A DNA stretch of 36,255 nucleotides from positions 90,638 through 126,892 of the forward strand of contig KQ964467.1 in assembly GCA_001566745.1 (NCBI GenBank), given 5' to 3'. Shown piece by piece: positions 2,364 to 33,453 of this stretch. Position 1 is the stretch's first letter; each line of letters opens with the position of its first letter. The notes under the pieces were generated by a model. The model was not told where the DNA came from. It saw nothing but the letters and a program-made list of their open reading frames with translations, and did no database searches. The DNA is from Conidiobolus coronatus NRRL 28638 (Eukaryota; Entomophthoromycota; Entomophthoromycetes; Entomophthorales; Conidiobolaceae). The position numbers were made by a program, and so were the translations under genes.

Positions 2364-2624
2364 TGAGTAATTCTGGTTAATTTGATTCAGTTTTGTATGA
2401 GTTCAGTTCAAAATTTTAACCATAGTATAAGCAAGTTTTTGGCGTTTATAGCGATAATTTAAAAGAAATTAGCTTATAATATCATATTAAAACGCTGTTT
2501 TGTTAGCTTTGACTAATAAAAGATATTTTTTATACGCTTTAAACATATAAAAAAACAAAATATTGTAGATTTGACCTATAAAAAATTTAGGTCAATTTGT
2601 CCTCGTTTTAACCAGAATCAGTCA
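2364..2624 (-). mobile_element. MITE-like element, copy A (261 bp)
   Basis: The left end reads TGAGTAATTCTGGTTAA and the right end, on the opposite strand, TGACTGATTCTGGTTAA, forming terminal inverted repeats that match at 15 of 17 positions. Both ends are bordered by TA, as expected of a Tc1/mariner-type target duplication, although TA is common here. The reverse complement aligns along its whole length with the copy at 29311-29565, including the interior around GCTAATTT and AATATGATATTAT. There is no coding capacity, so it would be non-autonomous. Strand is given relative to the 29311 copy. Confidence 0.7.
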
Positions 2625-15854: not shown

Positions 15855-16564
15855 ATAAATTTAACCTAATCGTGGCAACTTTCAAATTTATAAAAAAATT
15901 ATCAAGTTTTGAACCAGAATAAATTTGAAAACAATGATACTCATTATTTTATTGGCTAATTCGCGTATTTTTCTTGATTTTTAGTTAAAAATTTTGAGTA
16001 AATATTTGAATTTATTTCTTAAAATGGAATAGCTGGAATCAAGTTTAATTTGGATTTTTGCCAGTTATGAATTAATTATGCAACTAAAGTTGAAATTTTA
16101 AGTTTAACATTATTGATTGATGGTTTCAAATGTATACTCCAGAGATAAGTGATATAGTGTATGAAAAACTATTTCCTTAAAGATATCAATATTTATATTT
16201 ATAAGCATCGATTTTGATGAATAGAGTGCATATGTTTATATTATAATTATGTGATATCTTTAAGCATCCTGAAATACTTATCTAATTTATCGATTTATTT
16301 TAAGCCTTCACCTTTTAGTATTAACTTGTATTGCTAACAAATTGATATGGTTCAAGTCTCAGCAGCATAAAATATTAATAATAAGGATAATTTTGTCTCA
16401 TTTTCCACATTTTTTAAAGCTGTAAAAGGGATGATGGTCTAGAAATTACTCCTTCATTTAATGTAAAATTTAATTTCTTGAGTTTATTATAGGAGTCGTT
16501 TATTTATTAACATCTACCCTCCTTCGTAATTATGCGCAAGATTAAATAGCATACTTATCAATAG

Positions 16565-16640: not shown

Positions 16641-18032
16641 ATGTATACCTTTAATCTGGTTCAATTGGCCATCATTGGGCAAGTTTATGGGAGCTATCAA
16701 GTTACGGCTCCAACTACTAATGCTTACCCAGTAGCTTCTCCAACCACCCAGCAGCCATCTCCAGCATACCCAGTTATCACTTCTGCACCTGCTGGATACC
16801 CTACTGCTTCAAAACCCATTCCATCCTATCCAGTTCAACAGCCTCATGGTCCAATCAACTATCCAATTCTCTTACCTCCTGCCCCAATCAACTATCCCAT
16901 TCAACTTCCCCCTGCCCCAATCAACTATCCAGTTCAACAACCTCCTGCCCAGGTCAACTATCTAGTGCCCCCTAATCAAAACCATCCCAATGGAAATCGT
17001 AAATGTCACAAAGTTACCAAAGTATTTGATGTATGTGAAGGAGATCAATATCCTCATTTTAATTATCCAGCTCGCGATGATCATTATCGCGAAATTAGAT
17101 ATAACCAAGGGCTACCAACAGTATATGTAACTTTACCATGTGGTGTTCCAGTCCCAACTCATTACCCTGTCCAGCACAGCCCAATTCCTCCTCCACCTCC
17201 CCCACCATCAGCCACTAATCCACCAGCTTCTCATCCTGCAGTTGAACATCGCACTCACACTCATCCTGCCGTTCCTGTTATTCCTTCTTATCCAGTTATA
17301 CCCGCCACTACTCCTTGTCCCACTCTCACTGTAAAAGTTACTTCTGTTGTTTACCATACAGCTCAAGCAACACCTTGCACTACTGCACCTAAAGTTGTTC
17401 CAACTTACGAAATCAAAACCACTACACCATGCACAACCACACCTGCCCCAGTTCCAACTTATCATGTTAAGCATACAACTCCAGTCCATGTAATCAACTA
17501 TAGCACTACTACTCCTTGCACTACTACACCTGTCCCAATCCCAACTTATCAAGTTAAAACCACTACACCATGCACAACTACACCTATCCCTGTTCCAACC
17601 TATCATGTTAAACATACAACACCTGTTTATGTAATCGACTATCGCACTACTACCACTACACCTTGCACTACTACACCTAAAGTTGTTCCAACTTACGAAG
17701 TCAAAACCACTACACCATGCACAACCACACCTGCTCCAGTTCCAACTTATCAAGTTAAAACCACTACTCCAGTCTACGTAATTAACTATACCACTACTAC
17801 TACTCCCTGCACAACCACACCTATCCCAGTTCCAACTTATCAAGTTAAAACTACAACCCCAGCCTATGTGATTAACTATACCACCACTACTACTCCCTGC
17901 ACAACTACAACTAAACCAGCTCCAACTTACCAGGTTCAAACCACAGCTCCTGCTTATGTAGTTAACTATAGTACCACTACTAATGCACCTTATCTAGTTA
18001 ATTATAACACTCAACCCGTTCATTATGCTTAA
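16641..18032 (+). CDS. Secreted Pro/Thr/Tyr-rich repeat protein (extensin-like), paralogue 1
   Basis: Single exon, 463 residues. A signal peptide covers about residues 1-18 (cleavage near VYGS/YQV). Residues 25-112 are short repeats built on YPV and INYPI/V. Residues about 121-132 hold KCHKVTKVFDVCEG, a Cys pair (C-x9-C) also found in the next gene. After a short PPPPPPP run, residues about 225-450 are imperfect repeats of a unit like TTTPCTTTPxPVPTYxVK with VYVINY, each with one Cys. There is no hydrophobic C-terminal tail, so no GPI anchor is expected. The composition, with regularly spaced Tyr in Pro/Thr context, suits an O-glycosylated, cross-linkable wall or extracellular matrix protein. 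Codons end in C more often than in the housekeeping neighbours, suggesting strong expression or repeat-driven composition. Function is inferred from composition only. Confidence 0.8.
   Translation: MYTFNLVQLAIIGQVYGSYQVTAPTTNAYPVASPTTQQPSPAYPVITSAPAGYPTASKPIPSYPVQQPHGPINYPILLPPAPINYPIQLPPAPINYPVQQPPAQVNYLVPPNQNHPNGNRKCHKVTKVFDVCEGDQYPHFNYPARDDHYREIRYNQGLPTVYVTLPCGVPVPTHYPVQHSPIPPPPPPPSATNPPASHPAVEHRTHTHPAVPVIPSYPVIPATTPCPTLTVKVTSVVYHTAQATPCTTAPKVVPTYEIKTTTPCTTTPAPVPTYHVKHTTPVHVINYSTTTPCTTTPVPIPTYQVKTTTPCTTTPIPVPTYHVKHTTPVYVIDYRTTTTTPCTTTPKVVPTYEVKTTTPCTTTPAPVPTYQVKTTTPVYVINYTTTTTPCTTTPIPVPTYQVKTTTPAYVINYTTTTTPCTTTTKPAPTYQVQTTAPAYVVNYSTTTNAPYLVNYNTQPVHYA
17300..17990 (+). repeat. Tandem repeat array inside paralogue 1
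   Basis: DNA and protein repeats of the pattern TTTPC-TTTP-x-PVPTY-x-VK alternating with TTPVYVINY. Copies are imperfect and two unit lengths alternate. The biased codons also leave the opposite strand open, producing a spurious antisense reading frame. Confidence 0.8.
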
Positions 18033-19906: not shown

Positions 19907-22213
19907 ATGTCGATGCAACGTCATATTTTATTCAATTTATTGTGCTCTCTGATCACTGCTCAAAATGGACCTGCTTATCCAACAGTAGCATATCCTGCTT
20001 CAACCACGACTAGTGGATATTTGACAAGCAGTCTCCCCATTAAAAGCAGCAGTCCAGTAATTTCAAGCTACCCAACTAAGCCAACATCAGCTTATCCAAT
20101 TGACGATGAAGAAGACTGCGAAGAAGACTTGCCTTCACCACGTTACCTACCAGTCACTCATCAACCTCCTTCCAATGCACATGGGCCAATTATGCCTAAA
20201 TGGGATAACTATTCTCCAGTATGGGCCAATGACTACAATCGCCCTCCTCCAAGAGGTCAATACCCTACTGTAAACTACCCACCAGTCATACCTAGTCACA
20301 CTCTGACTTATCCAGTGCAGCCCACTGCATATCCCAAGAACCCTCATCATCAGCATCAACCAAGTAAATGCTTTTTAGTCACTAAAGTATACACTGTCTG
20401 TGAAGAAAACACTCCAACTTACTATCCTCCTCCCCCACCACCAGCTCCTGCTACTTCGCACTATGTTCCTCCCCCACCACCACCTCCAGCCCCTGCTACT
20501 TCTCAATATGTACCTCCTCCTCCTCCACCGGCACCTACTACACACTATATTCCTCCTCCTCCTCCTCCACCGCCAGCCCCTGCCACTTCACACTATATCC
20601 CACCACCACCACCAGCACCTGCTACCTCGCACTATGTACCTCCTCCTCCTCCACCAGCTCCTACTACCCAAAGATATATCCCTCCTCCACCCCCTCCAGC
20701 TACTACCCCTTGCGAAGAAACAACGAAGCCTGTCATTCCATCAGCAACTACCAGATCATATGTACCTCCTCCTCCAACATACCCTACTATCCCAGTAATT
20801 CCTACAACTACCACTAAGCCATACGTCCCTCCTCCCCCAGTATATACTACTACAACTGGAGTAATCCCTTCATCAACTACTAAGCCCTACGTCCCTCCTC
20901 CACCAGTATATACCACTACCACTCCCTGTGAAACCACTACAAAACCATATGTTCCCCCTCCACCAGTATATACCACTACAACTGGAGTAATTCCTTCATC
21001 AACTACTAAGCCCTATGTTCCTCCTCCACCAGTATATACCACTACCACTCCTTGTGAAACCACTACAAAGCCAGTGATTCCTTCATCAACTACCAAATCA
21101 TACGTACCTCCACCTCCAGTCTATACTACCACTACAGTATCAGTGATCCCTACAACTACCACTAAGCCATACGTCCCTCCTCCACCAGTATATACCACTA
21201 CAACTGGAGTAATTCCTTCATCAACTACTAAGCCATACGTTCCTCCACCACCAGTATATACTACTACTACTCCTTGTGAAACCACTACTAAGCCAGTGAT
21301 CCCTTCATCAACTACCAAATCATACGTTCCTCCACCTCCAGTTTACACTACCACTACAGTATCAGTAATCCCTACAACTACCACTAAGCCATACGTCCCT
21401 CCTCCACCAGTATATACTACTACCACTCCCTGTGAAACCACTACTAAACCAGTGATCCCTTCATCAACTACNNNNNNNNNNNNNNNNNNNNNNNNNNNNN
21501 NNNNNNNNNNNNNNNNNNNNNNNNNNNNNNNNNNNNNNNNNNNNNNNNNNNNNNNNNNNNNNNNNNNNNNNNNNNNNNNNNNNNNNNNNNNNNNNNNNNN
21601 NNNNNNNNNNNNNNNNNNNNNNNNNNNNNNNNNNNNNNNNNNNNNNNNNNNNNNNNNNNNNNNNNNNNNNNNNNNNNNNNNNNNNNNNNNNNNNNNNNNN
21701 NNNNNNNNNNNNNNNNNNNNNNNNNNNNNNNNNNNNNNNNNNNNNNNNNNNNNNNNNNNNNNNNNNNNNNNNNNNNNTAAATCTTACATTCCTCCCCCTC
21801 CAGTCTATACTACTACTACAGTATCAGTAATCCCTACAACTACCACTAAGCCATACGTCCCTCCTCCACCAGTGTATACTACCACTCCCTGTGAGACAAC
21901 TATTACTAAACCATCAGTTCCTACCTACACTGTAAAGACTTCATCTCCTCCACAATCTTACCCTGCACATACAACACAGGTTAACCATAACTACCCCACT
22001 ACCACACCATGTGAAACCGGAAACGGATCAACCCCTACTAAAGCATATGGTAACAATAACAACAACAACAATGGTTACCCAGTTAAGGAAAACAACACCT
22101 ATAACAATAACGGCCACTCCTCTAATGGAAATAACTCTTATGACAACAACAGTCACGGTTATGGCAACAATGGCTCCAATGGAAATCAAGGATATGCCAA
22201 CAAAAAGTACTAA
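19907..22213 (+). CDS. Secreted proline-rich extensin-like repeat protein, paralogue 2 (contains assembly gap)
   Basis: Single open frame of 768 codons, 102 of them unknown. A signal peptide is likely at residues 1-19. Residues 20-75 carry AYPV/SYPT-type repeats like paralogue 1. Near residue 154 is KCFLVTKVYTVCEE, matching the Cys-flanked VTKV motif of the upstream gene. Then come seven blocks of PPPPPP-APATSHYVP type, followed by at least eleven KPYVPPPPVYTTTT units joined by GVIPSSTT, VSVIPTTT or PCETTTKPVIPSSTT linkers. The C-terminus (about 710-768) is Asn/Gly-rich (GNNNNNNNGYPV) with no GPI signal. Pro-tract plus Tyr blocks resemble plant extensins, by convergence, and suggest a cross-linked wall or adhesive protein. 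True length is uncertain because of the gap. The start is the first ATG; a second ATG two codons later would keep the same signal peptide. Confidence 0.8.
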   Translation: MSMQRHILFNLLCSLITAQNGPAYPTVAYPASTTTSGYLTSSLPIKSSSPVISSYPTKPTSAYPIDDEEDCEEDLPSPRYLPVTHQPPSNAHGPIMPKWDNYSPVWANDYNRPPPRGQYPTVNYPPVIPSHTLTYPVQPTAYPKNPHHQHQPSKCFLVTKVYTVCEENTPTYYPPPPPPAPATSHYVPPPPPPPAPATSQYVPPPPPPAPTTHYIPPPPPPPPAPATSHYIPPPPPAPATSHYVPPPPPPAPTTQRYIPPPPPPATTPCEETTKPVIPSATTRSYVPPPPTYPTIPVIPTTTTKPYVPPPPVYTTTTGVIPSSTTKPYVPPPPVYTTTTPCETTTKPYVPPPPVYTTTTGVIPSSTTKPYVPPPPVYTTTTPCETTTKPVIPSSTTKSYVPPPPVYTTTTVSVIPTTTTKPYVPPPPVYTTTTGVIPSSTTKPYVPPPPVYTTTTPCETTTKPVIPSSTTKSYVPPPPVYTTTTVSVIPTTTTKPYVPPPPVYTTTTPCETTTKPVIPSSTXXXXXXXXXXXXXXXXXXXXXXXXXXXXXXXXXXXXXXXXXXXXXXXXXXXXXXXXXXXXXXXXXXXXXXXXXXXXXXXXXXXXXXXXXXXXXXXXXXXXXXXKSYIPPPPVYTTTTVSVIPTTTTKPYVPPPPVYTTTPCETTITKPSVPTYTVKTSSPPQSYPAHTTQVNHNYPTTTPCETGNGSTPTKAYGNNNNNNNGYPVKENNTYNNNGHSSNGNNSYDNNSHGYGNNGSNGNQGYANKKY
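20815..21930 (+). repeat. PPPPVYTTTT tandem array with 222-bp higher-order unit
   Basis: Units of 22, 23 and 29 codons combine into a 74-codon (222-bp) higher-order repeat: the PCETTTKPVIPSSTT block begins at 21050 and again at 21272. Copies are nearly identical at the DNA level, which explains the assembly gap within the array. Confidence 0.85.
21472..21777. other. Assembly gap (306 N)
   Basis: 306 undetermined bases inside the repeat array. The flanks are in the same repeat register: ...ACTAC on the left joins TAAATC on the right exactly as the other ACTACCAAATC copies do, so the missing DNA is probably a whole number of repeat units. The stated length, a multiple of three, may be an estimate. 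Confidence 0.95.
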
Positions 22214-25200
22214 TAGCTGATTAGCTCATTAGAGTTAAATACTCACTCATCCATGCTATAATTTAATATTTAAAAAAATATCATTCAATCATCTATTACC
22301 ATACTATCATACTATAATAAACTATTTTATATATTTTAAATTAATTTGATAATTTTATTGATTTTTAATTCAAAAGATATGATTAATGCTTTCTGAATGA
22401 AATAATTTTTGATGAAAACTTGCTAAAATTTAAAATAGTTTATTCTGGAACTTGTGAACGAATAGAATTTATGTATGTAATAATTGCACTTGTAAATATT
22501 ATATTATACTCTAAGCCTTGAAAATATAATCATAATAGATTTAACTGATAATAAATTAACTAATATTCTAATTAGTTAGATCCAATTTTCATTTAATTGA
22601 ATACAGTTAGTTAACATAAATTCGATAAATATTTTAAAGTTGCTCAATACAATCGAATTAAGCTCAAATCATGTTATAACTATTTTAAGCACTTTTATTC
22701 TTTATATTTACCAAATTAATCAAAAATGACTAAATGTTTTCATCTTTTTATTTTTAACTTAGCAGAGTGAGAATAAAGTAAAGAATCCAAATTAGCTGAG
22801 TAAAATTAAAAATTAATTATGTTTTTTACCAATCTAATAACCAGCTTAATTTGCGTGTTATTAGCTCTTAACTAGCAATAAGCCTACTACTTTATAGAGT
22901 AAGGCTTTTGTTACCAGTTTTGTTACTTAAAGCTAATTTAAGATCTAACATCCTAAATCTAACCCTATTTATATTTGTAAAAATTTAAATCCAGCCTTTT
23001 TATATAGCTATTTGCATTATAATTAACAATTAGAAAACAATATCGATAATTATGATCATAAAAAACTGACGATTTAGCTAACTCATTTTGCTTGATTATA
23101 AATAGTTAGATTAAGCTGTTATTAAAATAACTTGAATCAGATAGTTGATAAATATTTGAGCGTAATGATAATTATATGATTTTTTTTGAGAAAAATTAAC
23201 TTTATTTGATTGCTATTTTTACAAAACTAGGAATTTTAATTGTTCTAATTTAATGAGTAATGTGTAGAACATAGAAATAAATAGATTTATAACTATATTA
23301 TAATTAAAGCCAACTTGCTCTAGTAAAGCCCAGGTATTAGCGAAAAAGTATAGTTAAAAGTAGCAATACACATATAATATTAAAATCGAAGATACAATCC
23401 AAACTCTATTCTAATTACTAAAAAGAAGGCTAACTCATTCCAAAACGAGCATATCACCTTGAAACGAATGAATTAAATTGGCTAACTGATCACCTTTACC
23501 TAATTGAATAAACTTGTTATGATTTCAGCTTTTTACTGAGGGGAGCCAAACAAGCTAGGGTTCATTTCCGTATTTGGAAAGAGACATGGATCAGTGATCC
23601 ATATTGTTAATTTTGGAGCATCAAAATCAACAAAAGTATCGTGTTTTTATTATTGATCAGAGCAAAGGGTATCAACAAAAAATCGTTGCTTGTTAGTTGC
23701 ACTTGTTAAAAAGCACTCTAAGAATTATCTGTTACAAGAACGATTACTTGTATATGTAACTATTTTAATGCATTTACAATTTTAATTCCTCAAAATTGGT
23801 GGATAAGAATAAATTAACCAGAATTTAAACTTGTAATATTAAAATTCAATGAATACTCAATTAATTAATTGTGTTTCAATATGCTATTCCAAATATTATA
23901 CACACTTTATTAAGCTATACGAATAAAGATTACTATAGGCAGGCTACAATCAGTTGAAATTAAGTGATCTTGATCAATCATTTTACTGATTTGGAATATA
24001 TACTAAATTTGGAGAGAGGATGAGACAATCCGCTCAAATCCTTTGAAATCTCAAACCGGTAACTAGTAACTCTATTCCATTTATTGCCAATTTCAGCATT
24101 ACCATCAAATTTAACAATCAATAAATAGTAGTATTTGTACTACAAACTTCCTTATTTGAGAACTCAAATAGCAATCATGATTCTAAGCGCGGATTTGGAC
24201 TGGGCAGTACACTTTCTCCAAACTCTTCTCACATCGGAATTAAATTGCTCATTAAGGAAATTTATTTTTATATCGAAATGTGTTCAAGAAATATCCGATT
24301 TGACCAAAATCATAATTAAGCTAGAGTTTGTTCTTAGTAATAAACTGAATAGCTCAGATAATTTAATGATGATCCTTAATATTACATATATCCAAGTATG
24401 GATATGACTGCTACTCATATAAAGTATCTACAGGCTTTTTATATCCCGATACCGTCTTTCAAATCTAAAGTATAAAAAATTCATAGTAAAACCAAGTCTT
24501 ATTAACTTGCAGCGATCATTTGGAAATCCTGTCAATGGTAGATCACAAATAAAAGTTTATGGTTATTTTAGTTTTGATAAACTATTTTAAATCAGCCATA
24601 AAATCTATTAATAAGAGAATGTTAGTAAGAATTTTGAATATGCTAAACTTAGATGTAATTAATAACACGCTTTAATTGCTTCAAGATACTAAACAGATTG
24701 AATCTACAGAAAACTTTACCACCTTAAGATTCATCTATTTCACCACTAATTCATCGTTTTTTGAATTTGCATGATAATCAATCTGAGCTTTGAAGGTGAT
24801 GCATTAAATTTAATCATACAAATCTGATTTGCTCTTTTACTAATTTCGTATGGAGACTGTGTTTTATTTTTTGTGATTTACATATCTGAAGCAGGCGATC
24901 ACATCGTGACCAGATATTTTGTAACTAGCAAGATCCACTTATTTTATATTCATCAGTGATTGACGCTCACTTCTGAAGAATACAATACAAAGTGCTCTGG
25001 ATCCAGATACTAAACTCTGTCGTGATAATATTATTAGCTCAAATAGTGAAAGCTATAAAATCGTGATATAGCGTCTTAAATATTTAGTCTCAGGCACCAG
25101 GGTATATTGTACTTTTAGATAATATTATATTAAATGGATCAGCTTATATGTGATATACACTTGAATCTAATATCGATTATTGTATTAACTGAAATTCAAA

Positions 25201-28681: not shown

Positions 28682-29310
28682 TTATTTACTATGAGTTGAA
28701 AAGATTATTAAAATATATCTTTAGAAGTAGCTATATAGCCAATGCTTATTGTTTAACAATATTATTACTAGCTGCAGCTGGATATATTGCATTGATAAAC
28801 AAGATATAACTCTATATGCTATACAATCCATTTCAAATTGATTGAGGACATATTATTTGCATAATTAAAAATAAACTGTTTAATTCAAATAAATCAATTT
28901 TAGGTATTGACTATATGCCAAAAATATACAGATTTTTATGCTAGAAAATATTCTGGTTAATATTCGTATAAAAATTATTTTTATAATTTGAAAGTATAAA
29001 ATACTGATATTATCGAATAGCTAATCTATACTTAAATAGCGGTTTACCTCAATTGTATAAATATGATAACTTAAATCGATCTCAGAGTGCTCATGGGCGG
29101 ACTCAGACAGAGAGTGGCCTAAAGTTAATTATCATATATAATGCGATCTATATCTATTACTAGCATAAAAGGTGTGGATTTAGCTACTTATGTCGAAAAA
29201 TGATTAAAATTTATCATCAAAAATACACACTTCATGCTATTAACTGGATCTATATTACATTATAGTTTAAAGCCATATACGCCAAGCTTCAACTCGCATT
29301 ACTGAATGTA

Positions 29311-29565
29311 TGGTGATTCTGGTTAAATTGATGAAATTTTGTCAAATTTTTTATAGCGCAAAGTTACGATATTTTAGATTTCAAGTTGTTTAAACCTTAT
29401 TAAACAGCTATTTTTATTAGTTAAAGTTGATAGCATAATTTGCTAATATGATATTATTAAATTTGCTCTTTTGAAATATGATTACAAGCGCTAATTTCTC
29501 TTATATTAAAGTTAATTTAGAACAGAATTTACACAAATTTGAGTCAAATTAACCAGAATTACTTA
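29311..29565 (+). mobile_element. MITE-like element, copy B (255 bp)
   Basis: The left end is TGGTGATTCTGGTTAAATTGA and the right end, on the opposite strand, TAAGTAATTCTGGTTAATTTGA, bordered by TA on both sides. The interior aligns along its length with the reverse complement of copy A (shared TTTTTTATAG, TTTATTAGT, AATATGATATTAT and GCTAATTTCT blocks) and with the left two thirds of copy C. No coding capacity. Confidence 0.75.
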
Positions 29566-31958
29566 TATGCAATAAATATAACAATCAATCTGAATCGAGA
29601 AAGCGTCTTAGCTGTGATATCTAATTATATACCTTATGATCTAAATTAAATTTCTAAAATTAAAGTAAACTATTTAAAACGATTTAGAAATGAGTAGCAA
29701 GTATATTTTAATATCAGATCAAAAAAAATTTATATACATTATAATCTACTTTTTTGCAATTATATCTTGCTATAGAGTGAATCAGGTTTTATAATATTAT
29801 TACATCGCATGCATTAGCTGTTTCATCCTATTGATAGTCATACATTCACGAAAAATGAAAAAAATAGTATGTCTTTTAATAGTGTTTTATATTAATAGTA
29901 ATTTTGCGTAAAAATCAAAAAGAAAGATAATAAATATAGATATTTTAATATTTTAGTTTTATTTAAAAAAATATAGCTTATTAAATCAGCTCAAGTAACC
30001 AGAATTGTGTGTCAATAGTTAATTTTTTTCATTATTAGCAAGTTATAGAATTTAAAGATTATCTTATAACTTTATATAAAAATGAAAAACAGCAATAATT
30101 AATATGTATTAATATTACATTGACCAATCAAGAACTACGCCTCTAACTACTAAATATTTAGATTGGTTAATTTAAATGGCTATCTATATATAAAAAATTG
30201 ATTTATTATTTTGTATTGAGGTCATATTATACTTCAATTAATGCAGCTTAAGTTGGCCTCTTGTCCCGCCTCACCTTGCCAAGTATAAAAATGAAATACA
30301 CAACGCATTCAAATTGGCTTAACTCCTATTTTTCTTGAATTGAAAAATTAATTAGCTGATTGAAGTAACTAAATTTTGGACAATCAGTAAACAAATAGAA
30401 ATATTAGTTCTGTAGTTTGTTCACTGGCATTATATTGTTAAATGGCTATAATTAAATTATAGTCGTATTTCTAAATTTAGCTAATACCTCATATTAATGT
30501 GTGTAAACTAGGAGCGCATTATGGTAAACTTATAAAATATTACAAATTATTCTGTAATAAAATTTGCATAGTTTGGTTTAATTTTAGATATTATTCGGTT
30601 AATTGAATAAGCCAGTTAACTATTTCATTCATAAAACTATCCCCCTTAACCAATTTGAAATGTATAATATGCAAAATTTAATACAGCTTTATTGGCTGAA
30701 TATATTAAATCATTAAATTAGAGTGTATATCAATTTATTGAGGGTTCTTTCAACTGAGCCGATCACTCATGAACTCATCTAAAAGTTTTGCAGTATTCAA
30801 ACTATTATATGGAATTTGAATAGATTTATAATATAAACATTTTGGTAACTCAATAGACGGCTATAATAATGACAATAGGCTTATTTTGAGCTCAAGATTT
30901 GAAGTTCTCTGTAATAGGATATATGTAAGCTTTCTATAAAAAGCAACTATAACAAATCCGGACTTGCACAACAACCTCTGAAATTTGAACATAACTTGAA
31001 TTAAACCACTTTCACTCTAACCAAAAATTTACTCCTATCTCTAACTTGTTAAATATTATTTTTCTATTCACACCTGTGTTAATTATTAAATGGAGCCACT
31101 GCTATCCTAATTTGATCATTTTTTATCTTTTAATTTTGATCCATTTACAAAATGGACTTCTATCTAAAAATATTTACTTGAGGGTAAAGTGGATAAAATT
31201 CAAAGATAATGGTTTGATTATGTGGTGCTTGACTGTGTTCGCATATTATTAGGTATGCTATATATTTAAGATTTATACCACAGCTTGAATATTGAGAAGA
31301 TTGGGCGTTTGTTTTTATTCAACTGGATATAGCTTAGGAGACTTAGTAGCCAATATCAATAAATTTCTAATTAACCAAAGTATTAATTTCATCCAAAAAA
31401 ATCCTGCATTACACCAAAAACTAAGCACATTATTTTTCATGAATAAAAATAGTTAATGATTTGTTACTTTTTATGGACTTAGTTTAATTAACATTATAAC
31501 CAGAATCTGATAAATTTAATAAAATGAGAGATTGAAAGAGGTTATACTCTAACCAAAGAAAATATCAACCTACGCTATTTTAAAAACTTTTAGTTTATAA
31601 GCACTAGACAAATTTAGCGAAGGAAGCTATAAGAAAATAGTTTAATATTAGGTGTTATTACAGTAAAAAATCAATTGTTTTTTATCTATGCTGTGATACT
31701 GGTTCTCATTAAATTTTAGTTTTTTTTAGATTACTCTGTGTCAATTTAATTGCACTTAATCAGCGATCCAAAAAGTTATTTTTGGACATTAAAATTTTGG
31801 ATATTTTTGCAAATTACTTGGGAGATTAAATTGTTTATAAATGATATTTTTTTGGTAAGCGTGCGATACTTGATAGGTGTCTTAATATTATCTAACATCT
31901 ATTCCGATTTCAGTTAAAATAATTTACATCTATTTTAGAACTATCAATGATGTATATA

Positions 31959-32198
31959 TGGGTGATTATGGCTTAATTGAAGAAATTTTATCCAAAAATA
32001 TTTAAATAAAAAATTTGCAAATTTTTTGATTTTTACATGATTAAAGTCTATTGAGCAATTTCTTTTGCTAGCTAAAGTTGATAATATAGTATTTTAATAT
32101 GATACTATTATCAATTCCCTATTAAATAATGACTATACACGATGAAAACTCGGTTATAAAAAATTAAAAATTTGAAACGAGTTAACTATAATCTTTCA
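31959..32198 (+). mobile_element. MITE-like element, copy C, degenerate (240 bp)
   Basis: The left end TGGGTGATTATGGCTTAATTGA and following GAAATTTTATCC align with copy B, as does the interior GCTAAAGTTGATA...AATATGATACTATTA. The right end on the opposite strand, TGAAAGATTATAGTTAA, is a decayed inverted repeat. TA borders both ends. The most diverged of the three copies. Confidence 0.6.
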
Positions 32199-33453
32199 TA
32201 TATAGTTTTAAGTGTCAGAATCTTATTACAAATACGATCAATACTTTATTTTTAAAATTGTTTCTATGGATTTTATAAAAGATAATACATTATTCTATTG
32301 TTAAATAGATACTATAAATTATGGTTTATAAAATAAGATGCTAGATCTATTAATGTAATTTATATTTTAACATACTTAGTTCTCATTTCTAATTTTAAAA
32401 GGTTTACACTGTATTTTTAAGATTTGTTATTCTTAATAACTAAATTTAGAGCTAGTTTTATTGAGTATATTTGTCTTTTAATACATTCACTATTTACTTC
32501 GATTATAGAAATTAAAATCATAACCCCATTCGTAATTTTATTTTATTATTAATATAACCTTTTATACAACTCCAATATCTTGAATAATTATTTATAACTC
32601 TAAATTTGCAAAGTTTATTATAAAGCAGAAGTTTAAAGTTAATACCTGTATATAAGTCAGCTTATTTCATTATTTAATACTTTAATATCAATCTATGCTA
32701 ATTTATTTATCTAAAATTATAAAAACACTCATAATTATATAATATAGACTATATAGACTATCTCAATAATAGCATTAACGATTTATATTTATCAATTTAA
32801 AATACTAATCTTATAATAGAATATATATATATATATGCATACTTATATGAATGTAAGCAACCTATTGCAATGAACATAGTATATATAGTCAGCAGCTTGA
32901 ATGAGTTTAATTTTTTGTATTTTTGCTACTTGATTTAAACTAAATGGAATCAAAGCACTAATATTGTTATATAAAAAATCTCCAGATTGTTTTTAGATTA
33001 AATCTATATAGGTTGAATAGTTTTTTAATGGTTTTATTGTTGCCCCGAAAACTTTGAAAGATAAAAAAATAATATTTAATATATTTTGCTTTGTTAAAAT
33101 GTTGCCAAAAACTATGAGTCGGCAATGCTTAATTAAAATTTATTATCTGCATTTTTATAGCGAAATATATAATTAAAAACTCTAGTTGATATATGATATA
33201 ATTTCACAATTATATATTATTTTTATTCAAGTCTAGTTTATTTGATTTATAAGATACAATTTGAATAATATTACAAAGCTAATATAAAACTAGTATGTTT
33301 TAATGTTAAGCTCTAATTATACAATTTAACAAAAGTTTTGAATTTGTAAAGTTTTGCATGTTTAATAATAAATAAAAGTTTATAGTAGCATATGATACAA
33401 GTAAAGAAATCATAGCTGTATCTATTAAATAATAAAATATACATATATCGATT

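What the first reader, a model, noticed from the sequence alone, without database searches (positions are those of the whole stretch)
29311..29565. A short TIR element family (MITE-like) with three full-length copies in one window
Copies at 2364-2624 (reverse), 29311-29565 and 31959-32198 share ends of the form TGAGTRATTCTGGTTAA, TA borders, length 240-261 bp and alignable interiors. They have no coding capacity. Full-length similarity between copies 27 kb apart on opposite strands argues for transposition rather than chance. Additional one-sided end matches near 15911, 23811, 28949, 29994 and 31496 hint at older fragments. The ends do not look like the CAGT ends usual for Tc1/mariner, so the family may be undescribed.
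Basis: partly seen in the sequence, partly recalled or inferred. Interest (0 to 1): 0.75.

Follow-up and report, generated by a model that had tools for sequence, protein, structure and literature searches.

The report
High-copy MITE family in a fungus
The three short sequences are copies of a real, high-copy family of small non-coding jumping DNA elements in what looks like an early-diverging fungus; the kind is well known, but the enzyme that moved this family was not found.

Summary
Copies at 2364-2624 (+), 29311-29565 (-) and 31959-32198 (-) belong to one family. In the window's own genome (17.5 Mb, 186 contigs), three query copies found 120 distinct places (lower bound). The terminal repeat TGAGTRATTCTGGTTAA matched 577 times, the reversed control 6: very roughly 360-380 copies.

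Borders are sharp: TA|TGAGTRATTCTGGTTAA...TTAACCAGAATYACTCA|TA. Of 110 copies with both ends, 83 have TA on both sides and 97 are 250-269 bp. In 77 of those 83 the TA sits in A-TA...TA-T. Two copies interrupt sister copies at an ATAT, giving paralogous empty sites.

It is a MITE family, most likely moved by a Tc1/mariner-type transposase that duplicates TA; a 4-bp ATAT duplication is not excluded. No such transposase was found, but only one of five profile searches had a working control. No longer element was seen in 60 short regions fetched around exact ends; three of these cannot be judged. Copies are old: median 17% from consensus, closest pair 3.4%. New member of a known kind.

The parts
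2364..2624 (+). MITE copy A, full length (261 bp); TA at 2362-2363 and 2625-2626
   Evidence: Profile match 1-266, E 4.8e-71 (A is among the sequences of the profile); its 40 scored genome places are 82-100% identical, itself included, mostly full length
29311..29565 (-). MITE copy B, full length (255 bp); TA at 29309-29310 and 29566-29567
   Evidence: Profile match 2-262, E 1.2e-53 (B is among the sequences of the profile); other genome places 73-87% identical
31959..32198 (-). MITE copy C with a ~20-bp interior gap and degenerate ends (240 bp); TA at 31957-31958 and 32199-32200
   Evidence: Profile match 38-266, E 5.5e-36; the other 39 of its 40 best genome places are 78-85% identical
23632..23825 (-). 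possible decayed copy: exact end core at 23815-23825 plus weak body similarity
   Evidence: Profile 8-213, E 0.041; core exact. Weak.

Best explanation
[quoted passage not shown] Shown: many copies with coinciding ends, in both orientations, TA on both sides in most, and empty sites in sister copies. Inferred: each copy was moved as DNA by a transposase made elsewhere that bound the repeats, and was inserted at ATAT, most likely duplicating the central TA. Inferred with less certainty (about 0.6): that transposase was of the IS630/Tc1/mariner class. The family was amplified over a long time in several subfamilies; the copies compared show no very recent burst.
For: Genome matches: 42, 44 and 46 alignments from copies B, A and C, merging to 120 distinct places on 69 contigs. 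End motif 294+283 against control 3+3. Column conservation falls from about 86-95% to below 60% just outside ATATGAG...CTCATAT (60 copies). TA on both sides 83 of 110; TA in the outer flanks 14%. 97 of 110 copies 250-269 bp. Agreement between flanks is highest at the two positions of a TA duplication (z 2.5 and 2.3; next highest of 81 cells 2.0). Nested insertions L073 and L117 fall at host ATAT, profile 65-68 and 200-203. A third, weaker empty site: flanks of L020 match L037 across the junction at 74%.
Against: No transposase of a TA-targeting class was found: DDE_3 0 matches (control rang), DDE_1, Transposase_1, HTH_Tnp_Tc5 and Plavaka 0 matches (controls did not ring, so absence is not shown). 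The ends do not begin CAGT. 27 of 110 copies lack TA on both sides, by mutation, small indels or misplaced ends. The base outside each TA is nearly fixed (A...T in 77 of 83), more than a plain TA target would give. Of three copies whose flanking dinucleotides match but are not TA, two (L115, L042) also fit a 4-bp duplication.
Confidence: 0.88

Rival explanations
1. The same kind of element, but moved by a transposase outside Tc1/mariner that makes a 4-bp ATAT duplication, with the element running from GAG to CTC.
For: The outer A and T are nearly fixed (77 of 83 copies), and ATAT is a palindrome, so 2-bp and 4-bp duplications give the same letters in most copies, including both nested cases. 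71 of 110 copies fit a 4-bp duplication exactly, two of them with other letters than ATAT (L115 ATGT, L042 AAAT).
Against: All 6 copies with TA on both sides that deviate at an outer base disagree with a 4-bp duplication, and L044 (TT on both sides) disagrees too; the best flank agreement is at the TA positions only, with modest z. Mutation after insertion could blur both.
Confidence: 0.15
2. A PIF/Harbinger-moved MITE; the genome has one intact DDE_Tnp_4 plus chromodomain reading frame (L125).
For: One DDE_Tnp_4 place, E 8.6e-9, 551-aa frame with a Chromo match.
Against: No end of the family in the 3453 bases of L125 (the domain match with about 1.5 kb on each side): the best end match is 4 of 17 off, the best body match E 0.19. 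PIF/Harbinger makes 3-bp duplications (recalled); the usual flanks are ATA left and TAT right (77 of 110), which is no 3-bp repeat for symmetric ends.
Confidence: 0.06
3. A repeat spread by duplication of chromosome segments or by a retroelement, not by DNA transposition.
For: Copies cluster, and several abut one another.
Against: Joined flanks of 106 full-length hits, searched against the fetched loci and window only, matched another place across the junction in one case (L020/L037); the remaining near-identical pairs are the same or overlapping genome places fetched twice. Inverted ends, TA on both sides and nested empty sites are not those of a retroelement.
Confidence: 0.02

Closest known systems
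Stowaway-type / Tc1-mariner-related MITEs
   Same: TA duplication, short, non-coding, inverted ends, high copy, uniform length (general traits as in passages of PMC4054914 and PMC4495683)
   Different: End sequence differs from the CAGT ends of the Tc1-like elements in PMC4054914; no mobilising element identified
Submariner MITEs of Pandoravirus salinus (PMC4495683, passages seen)
   Same: 243-bp consensus, TA duplication, paralogous empty site as evidence
   Different: 30 copies and ~100-bp inverted repeats there, with a related (inactive) Tc1/mariner element in an amoeba; here hundreds of ends, 17-bp inverted repeats, no partner found
mimp elements of Fusarium (recalled, not tested)
   Same: about 200-bp fungal MITEs with TA duplication, moved by a Tc1/mariner element (impala)
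   Different: mimp ends begin CAGT and mimps are in Ascomycota (recalled)
IS630 and Tc1 target choice (recalled)
   Same: TA duplication inside a preferred palindrome (CTAG; ATAT-containing)
   Different: Target preference alone does not show membership

Membership tests
MITE | many copies of uniform short length | tested here: met
   97 of 110 copies 250-269 bp; 120 distinct places and 577 end matches
MITE | terminal inverted repeats with sharp borders | tested here: met
MITE | target site duplication | tested here: met
   TA/TA 83 of 110; nested empty sites L073, L117; TA against ATAT not fully separated
MITE | no coding capacity | tested here: met
   Longest frame overlapping copies A, B, C is 26, 36 and 27 aa; elements 223-311 bp, mean G+C 22.5%
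MITE | related autonomous element | tested here: inconclusive
   none recognised in 60 fetched end regions of about 180-900 bp (44 full MITEs, 10 cut by N, 6 partial or composite); 3 of the 10 show no body before the N (L061, L096, L119) and cannot be judged. 7 of 7 ends with an unusual next base were MITEs, four of them places already fetched
Tc1/mariner superfamily | TA target and duplication | tested here: met
   a 4-bp duplication remains possible
Tc1/mariner superfamily | DDE/D transposase of the family with the same ends | tested here: inconclusive
   DDE_3 0 matches with working (prokaryote) control; DDE_1, Transposase_1, HTH_Tnp_Tc5 0 matches without working control
Tc1/mariner superfamily | CAGT ends (Tc1-like elements, as in passages of PMC4054914) | tested here: not met
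   ends are TGAGTRATTCTGG; recalled: not a defining feature of all branches
PIF/Harbinger | 3-bp target duplication (recalled) | tested here: not met
   left ATA against right TAT in 77 of 110; no 3-bp repeat for symmetric ends

The most novel reading that the evidence does not exclude
The family was moved by a transposase of a lineage not represented in the profiles tried, with an almost obligatory ATAT target (perhaps a 4-bp duplication), and that transposase has been lost from the genome while several hundred copies remain.
Probability: 0.1. Interest if true: 0.5.

Novelty: new member of a known kind. Interest (0 to 1): 0.33.

Why it matters
It documents an old, high-copy MITE family in an AT-rich genome of a poorly sampled fungal lineage, with borders and target defined well enough to annotate it and to use copies as insertion markers. 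It also suggests that some scaffold gaps are unresolved MITEs (10 of 60 fetched end regions run into N). The mechanism itself is ordinary.

Tried and rejected
Rejected: chance similarity; segmental duplication (within the sequence held). A longer element in the window between the half ends at 28949, 29996 and 31497: the inward regions have no full-length relative in the fetched loci. For the four single regions the best match was 58 bp, E 1e-4; for the whole stretch, besides copy B's relatives, 41 bp, E 2e-7 (rows of 99% identity or more were not printed). In L001-L060 and the window, 88 of 92 exact cores lie in recognised copies and 4 outside (3 distinct places, two of them in the window). 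I leave these half ends unexplained. End motif in viral contigs: 0. In prokaryote genomes: 25 single hits, fewer than the roughly 60 I would expect by chance for this motif in 257 billion bases (my arithmetic). Paper searches: end strings 0 papers; five of the other seven listed 1-4 papers, none seen in the listings to concern this family, and two listed none.

Rows dropped before counts: 137 full profile hits became 126 after removing same-strand duplicates and N-containing copies, 113 after requiring both ends within 4 mismatches, and 110 after removing second-strand readings of L021, L099 and L040. The 126 sequences are 121 distinct copies: five near-palindromic ones were read on both strands, which inflates the largest distances. 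One search merged pieces within 20 bp, which may join abutting copies.

Full report
Host. The window is contig C49:90638-126892 of a 17.5-Mb assembly in 186 contigs. It is AT-rich (23-31% G+C in 15 of 18 two-kb steps). Its DEAD-box protein has a 95% unnamed match from Logan; the best named relatives are mostly Glomeromycotina at 30-37%. An RPB2 of the genome is 99% identical to a JGI metagenome protein; the other listed matches (best 120 of 7986) are 66-81% identical, mostly over about half the length, with non-Dikarya fungi prominent near the top. So it is a fungus, probably outside Dikarya; I could not name it.

Observation. A profile built from genome copies finds exactly these three in the window at E<=1e-3. 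No frame longer than 36 aa overlaps them.

Family size. Genome searches with B, A and C gave 42, 44 and 46 alignments; each call scored only 40 of 351, 413 and 320 first-look candidates, so these are lower bounds. They merge to 120 distinct places on 69 contigs. The end motif with up to 2 mismatches occurs 577 times, against 6 for the reversed control. In copies with both ends, 171 of 226 ends reach that threshold (114 of 144 in L001-L060), so 577 ends correspond to roughly 360-380 assembled copies. The sample was chosen by similarity or by its ends, so this is rough.

Borders and target. Conservation is about 86-95% at ATATGAG and CTCATAT and falls below 60% beyond. In 110 copies with both ends, 83 have TA/TA, and 77 of these 83 have A before and T after. 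TA makes up 14% of outer-flank dinucleotides. Agreement between flanks is highest where a TA duplication predicts it (z 2.5 and 2.3); the signal is modest because most copies are identical there. Two copies interrupt sister copies: L073 at host ATAT (profile 65-68) and L117 at host ATAT (200-203). This indicates that the outer A and T belonged to the target. Because ATAT is a palindrome these cases cannot tell a TA from an ATAT duplication. Six copies with TA/TA deviate at an outer base and none fits a 4-bp duplication. Of three copies with matching dinucleotides other than TA, two (TG, AA) fit both models and one (TT) fits only the 2-bp one. I therefore favour TA but do not exclude 4 bp. A third empty-site case, L020 against L037, is a 74% similar flank crossing the junction; the matching stretch of L037 lies in no frame of 50 aa or more.

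Age and structure. 126 aligned sequences (121 distinct copies) differ from their consensus by 11.7% at least and 16.9% at the median; the nearest neighbour is 12.7% away at the median and 3.4% in the closest pair. Subfamilies are visible in the ends: 15 of 110 copies have an end GAAAGATTCTAGTTAA exactly. Some copies are near-palindromes, such as L021, whose 89-nt arms are 85% complementary. Several copies abut each other sharing the border TA, for instance in L023, L041, L045 and L051.

Source of transposase. I fetched 60 regions of about 180-900 bp around exact ends outside the first 60 loci; one search lists only the first exact ends, about a hundred of the 577 matches, and about five listed ends were not fetched at that stage. 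44 regions hold a full MITE, 10 are cut by runs of N and 6 are partial or composite. None shows a longer element, but in three (L061, L096, L119) the N begins right behind the end. Seven ends with an unusual next base were all MITEs, four of them at places already held. DDE_3 gave 0 matches with a working prokaryote control. DDE_1, Transposase_1, HTH_Tnp_Tc5 and Plavaka gave 0 without one, so absence is not shown. Of the six transposase families searched, only DDE_Tnp_4 matched: one frame with a chromodomain and none of the family's ends in the 3.4 kb around it.

Conclusion. A MITE family, shown by size, ends, flanking TA and empty sites. The Tc1/mariner class of the mobilising enzyme is inferred from the TA target. 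Five end strings are in none of the papers searched; no library of repeat families was available, so I do not claim that the family is undescribed.

Noticed in passing
L125:862-2517 (G000 C85 near 42245-42697): A 551-aa intact frame joining a DDE_Tnp_4 (Harbinger-type) domain and a C-terminal chromodomain; the only DDE_Tnp_4 place reported in the genome.
   Followed up: partly
L021, L093, L110: MITE variants or neighbours with long inverted arms (72-113 nt, 74-85% complementary), perhaps products of aberrant transposition or of inverted neighbours.
   Followed up: partly
L061, L062, L063, L071, L084, L088, L096, L101, L112, L119: 10 of 60 fetched end regions run into N, so some scaffold gaps of this assembly may be unresolved MITEs.
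   Followed up: partly
P0122: A protein filed under Puccinia striiformis PST-78 (PSTG_15491) scores far higher against this fungus's RPB2 (1705 bits) than those of P. triticina and P. graminis do (1266, 1260), which suggests a contaminant contig from a relative of this host.
   Followed up: no
window 16641-18032 and 19907-22213: Two frames rich in Pro/Thr repeats with hydrophobic starts (by eye), the second interrupted by a run of X/N; possibly cell-surface proteins.
   Followed up: no
window 29996-30006 and 31497-31507: Exact end cores RATTCTGGTTA without a recognisable element body; unexplained.
   Followed up: partly
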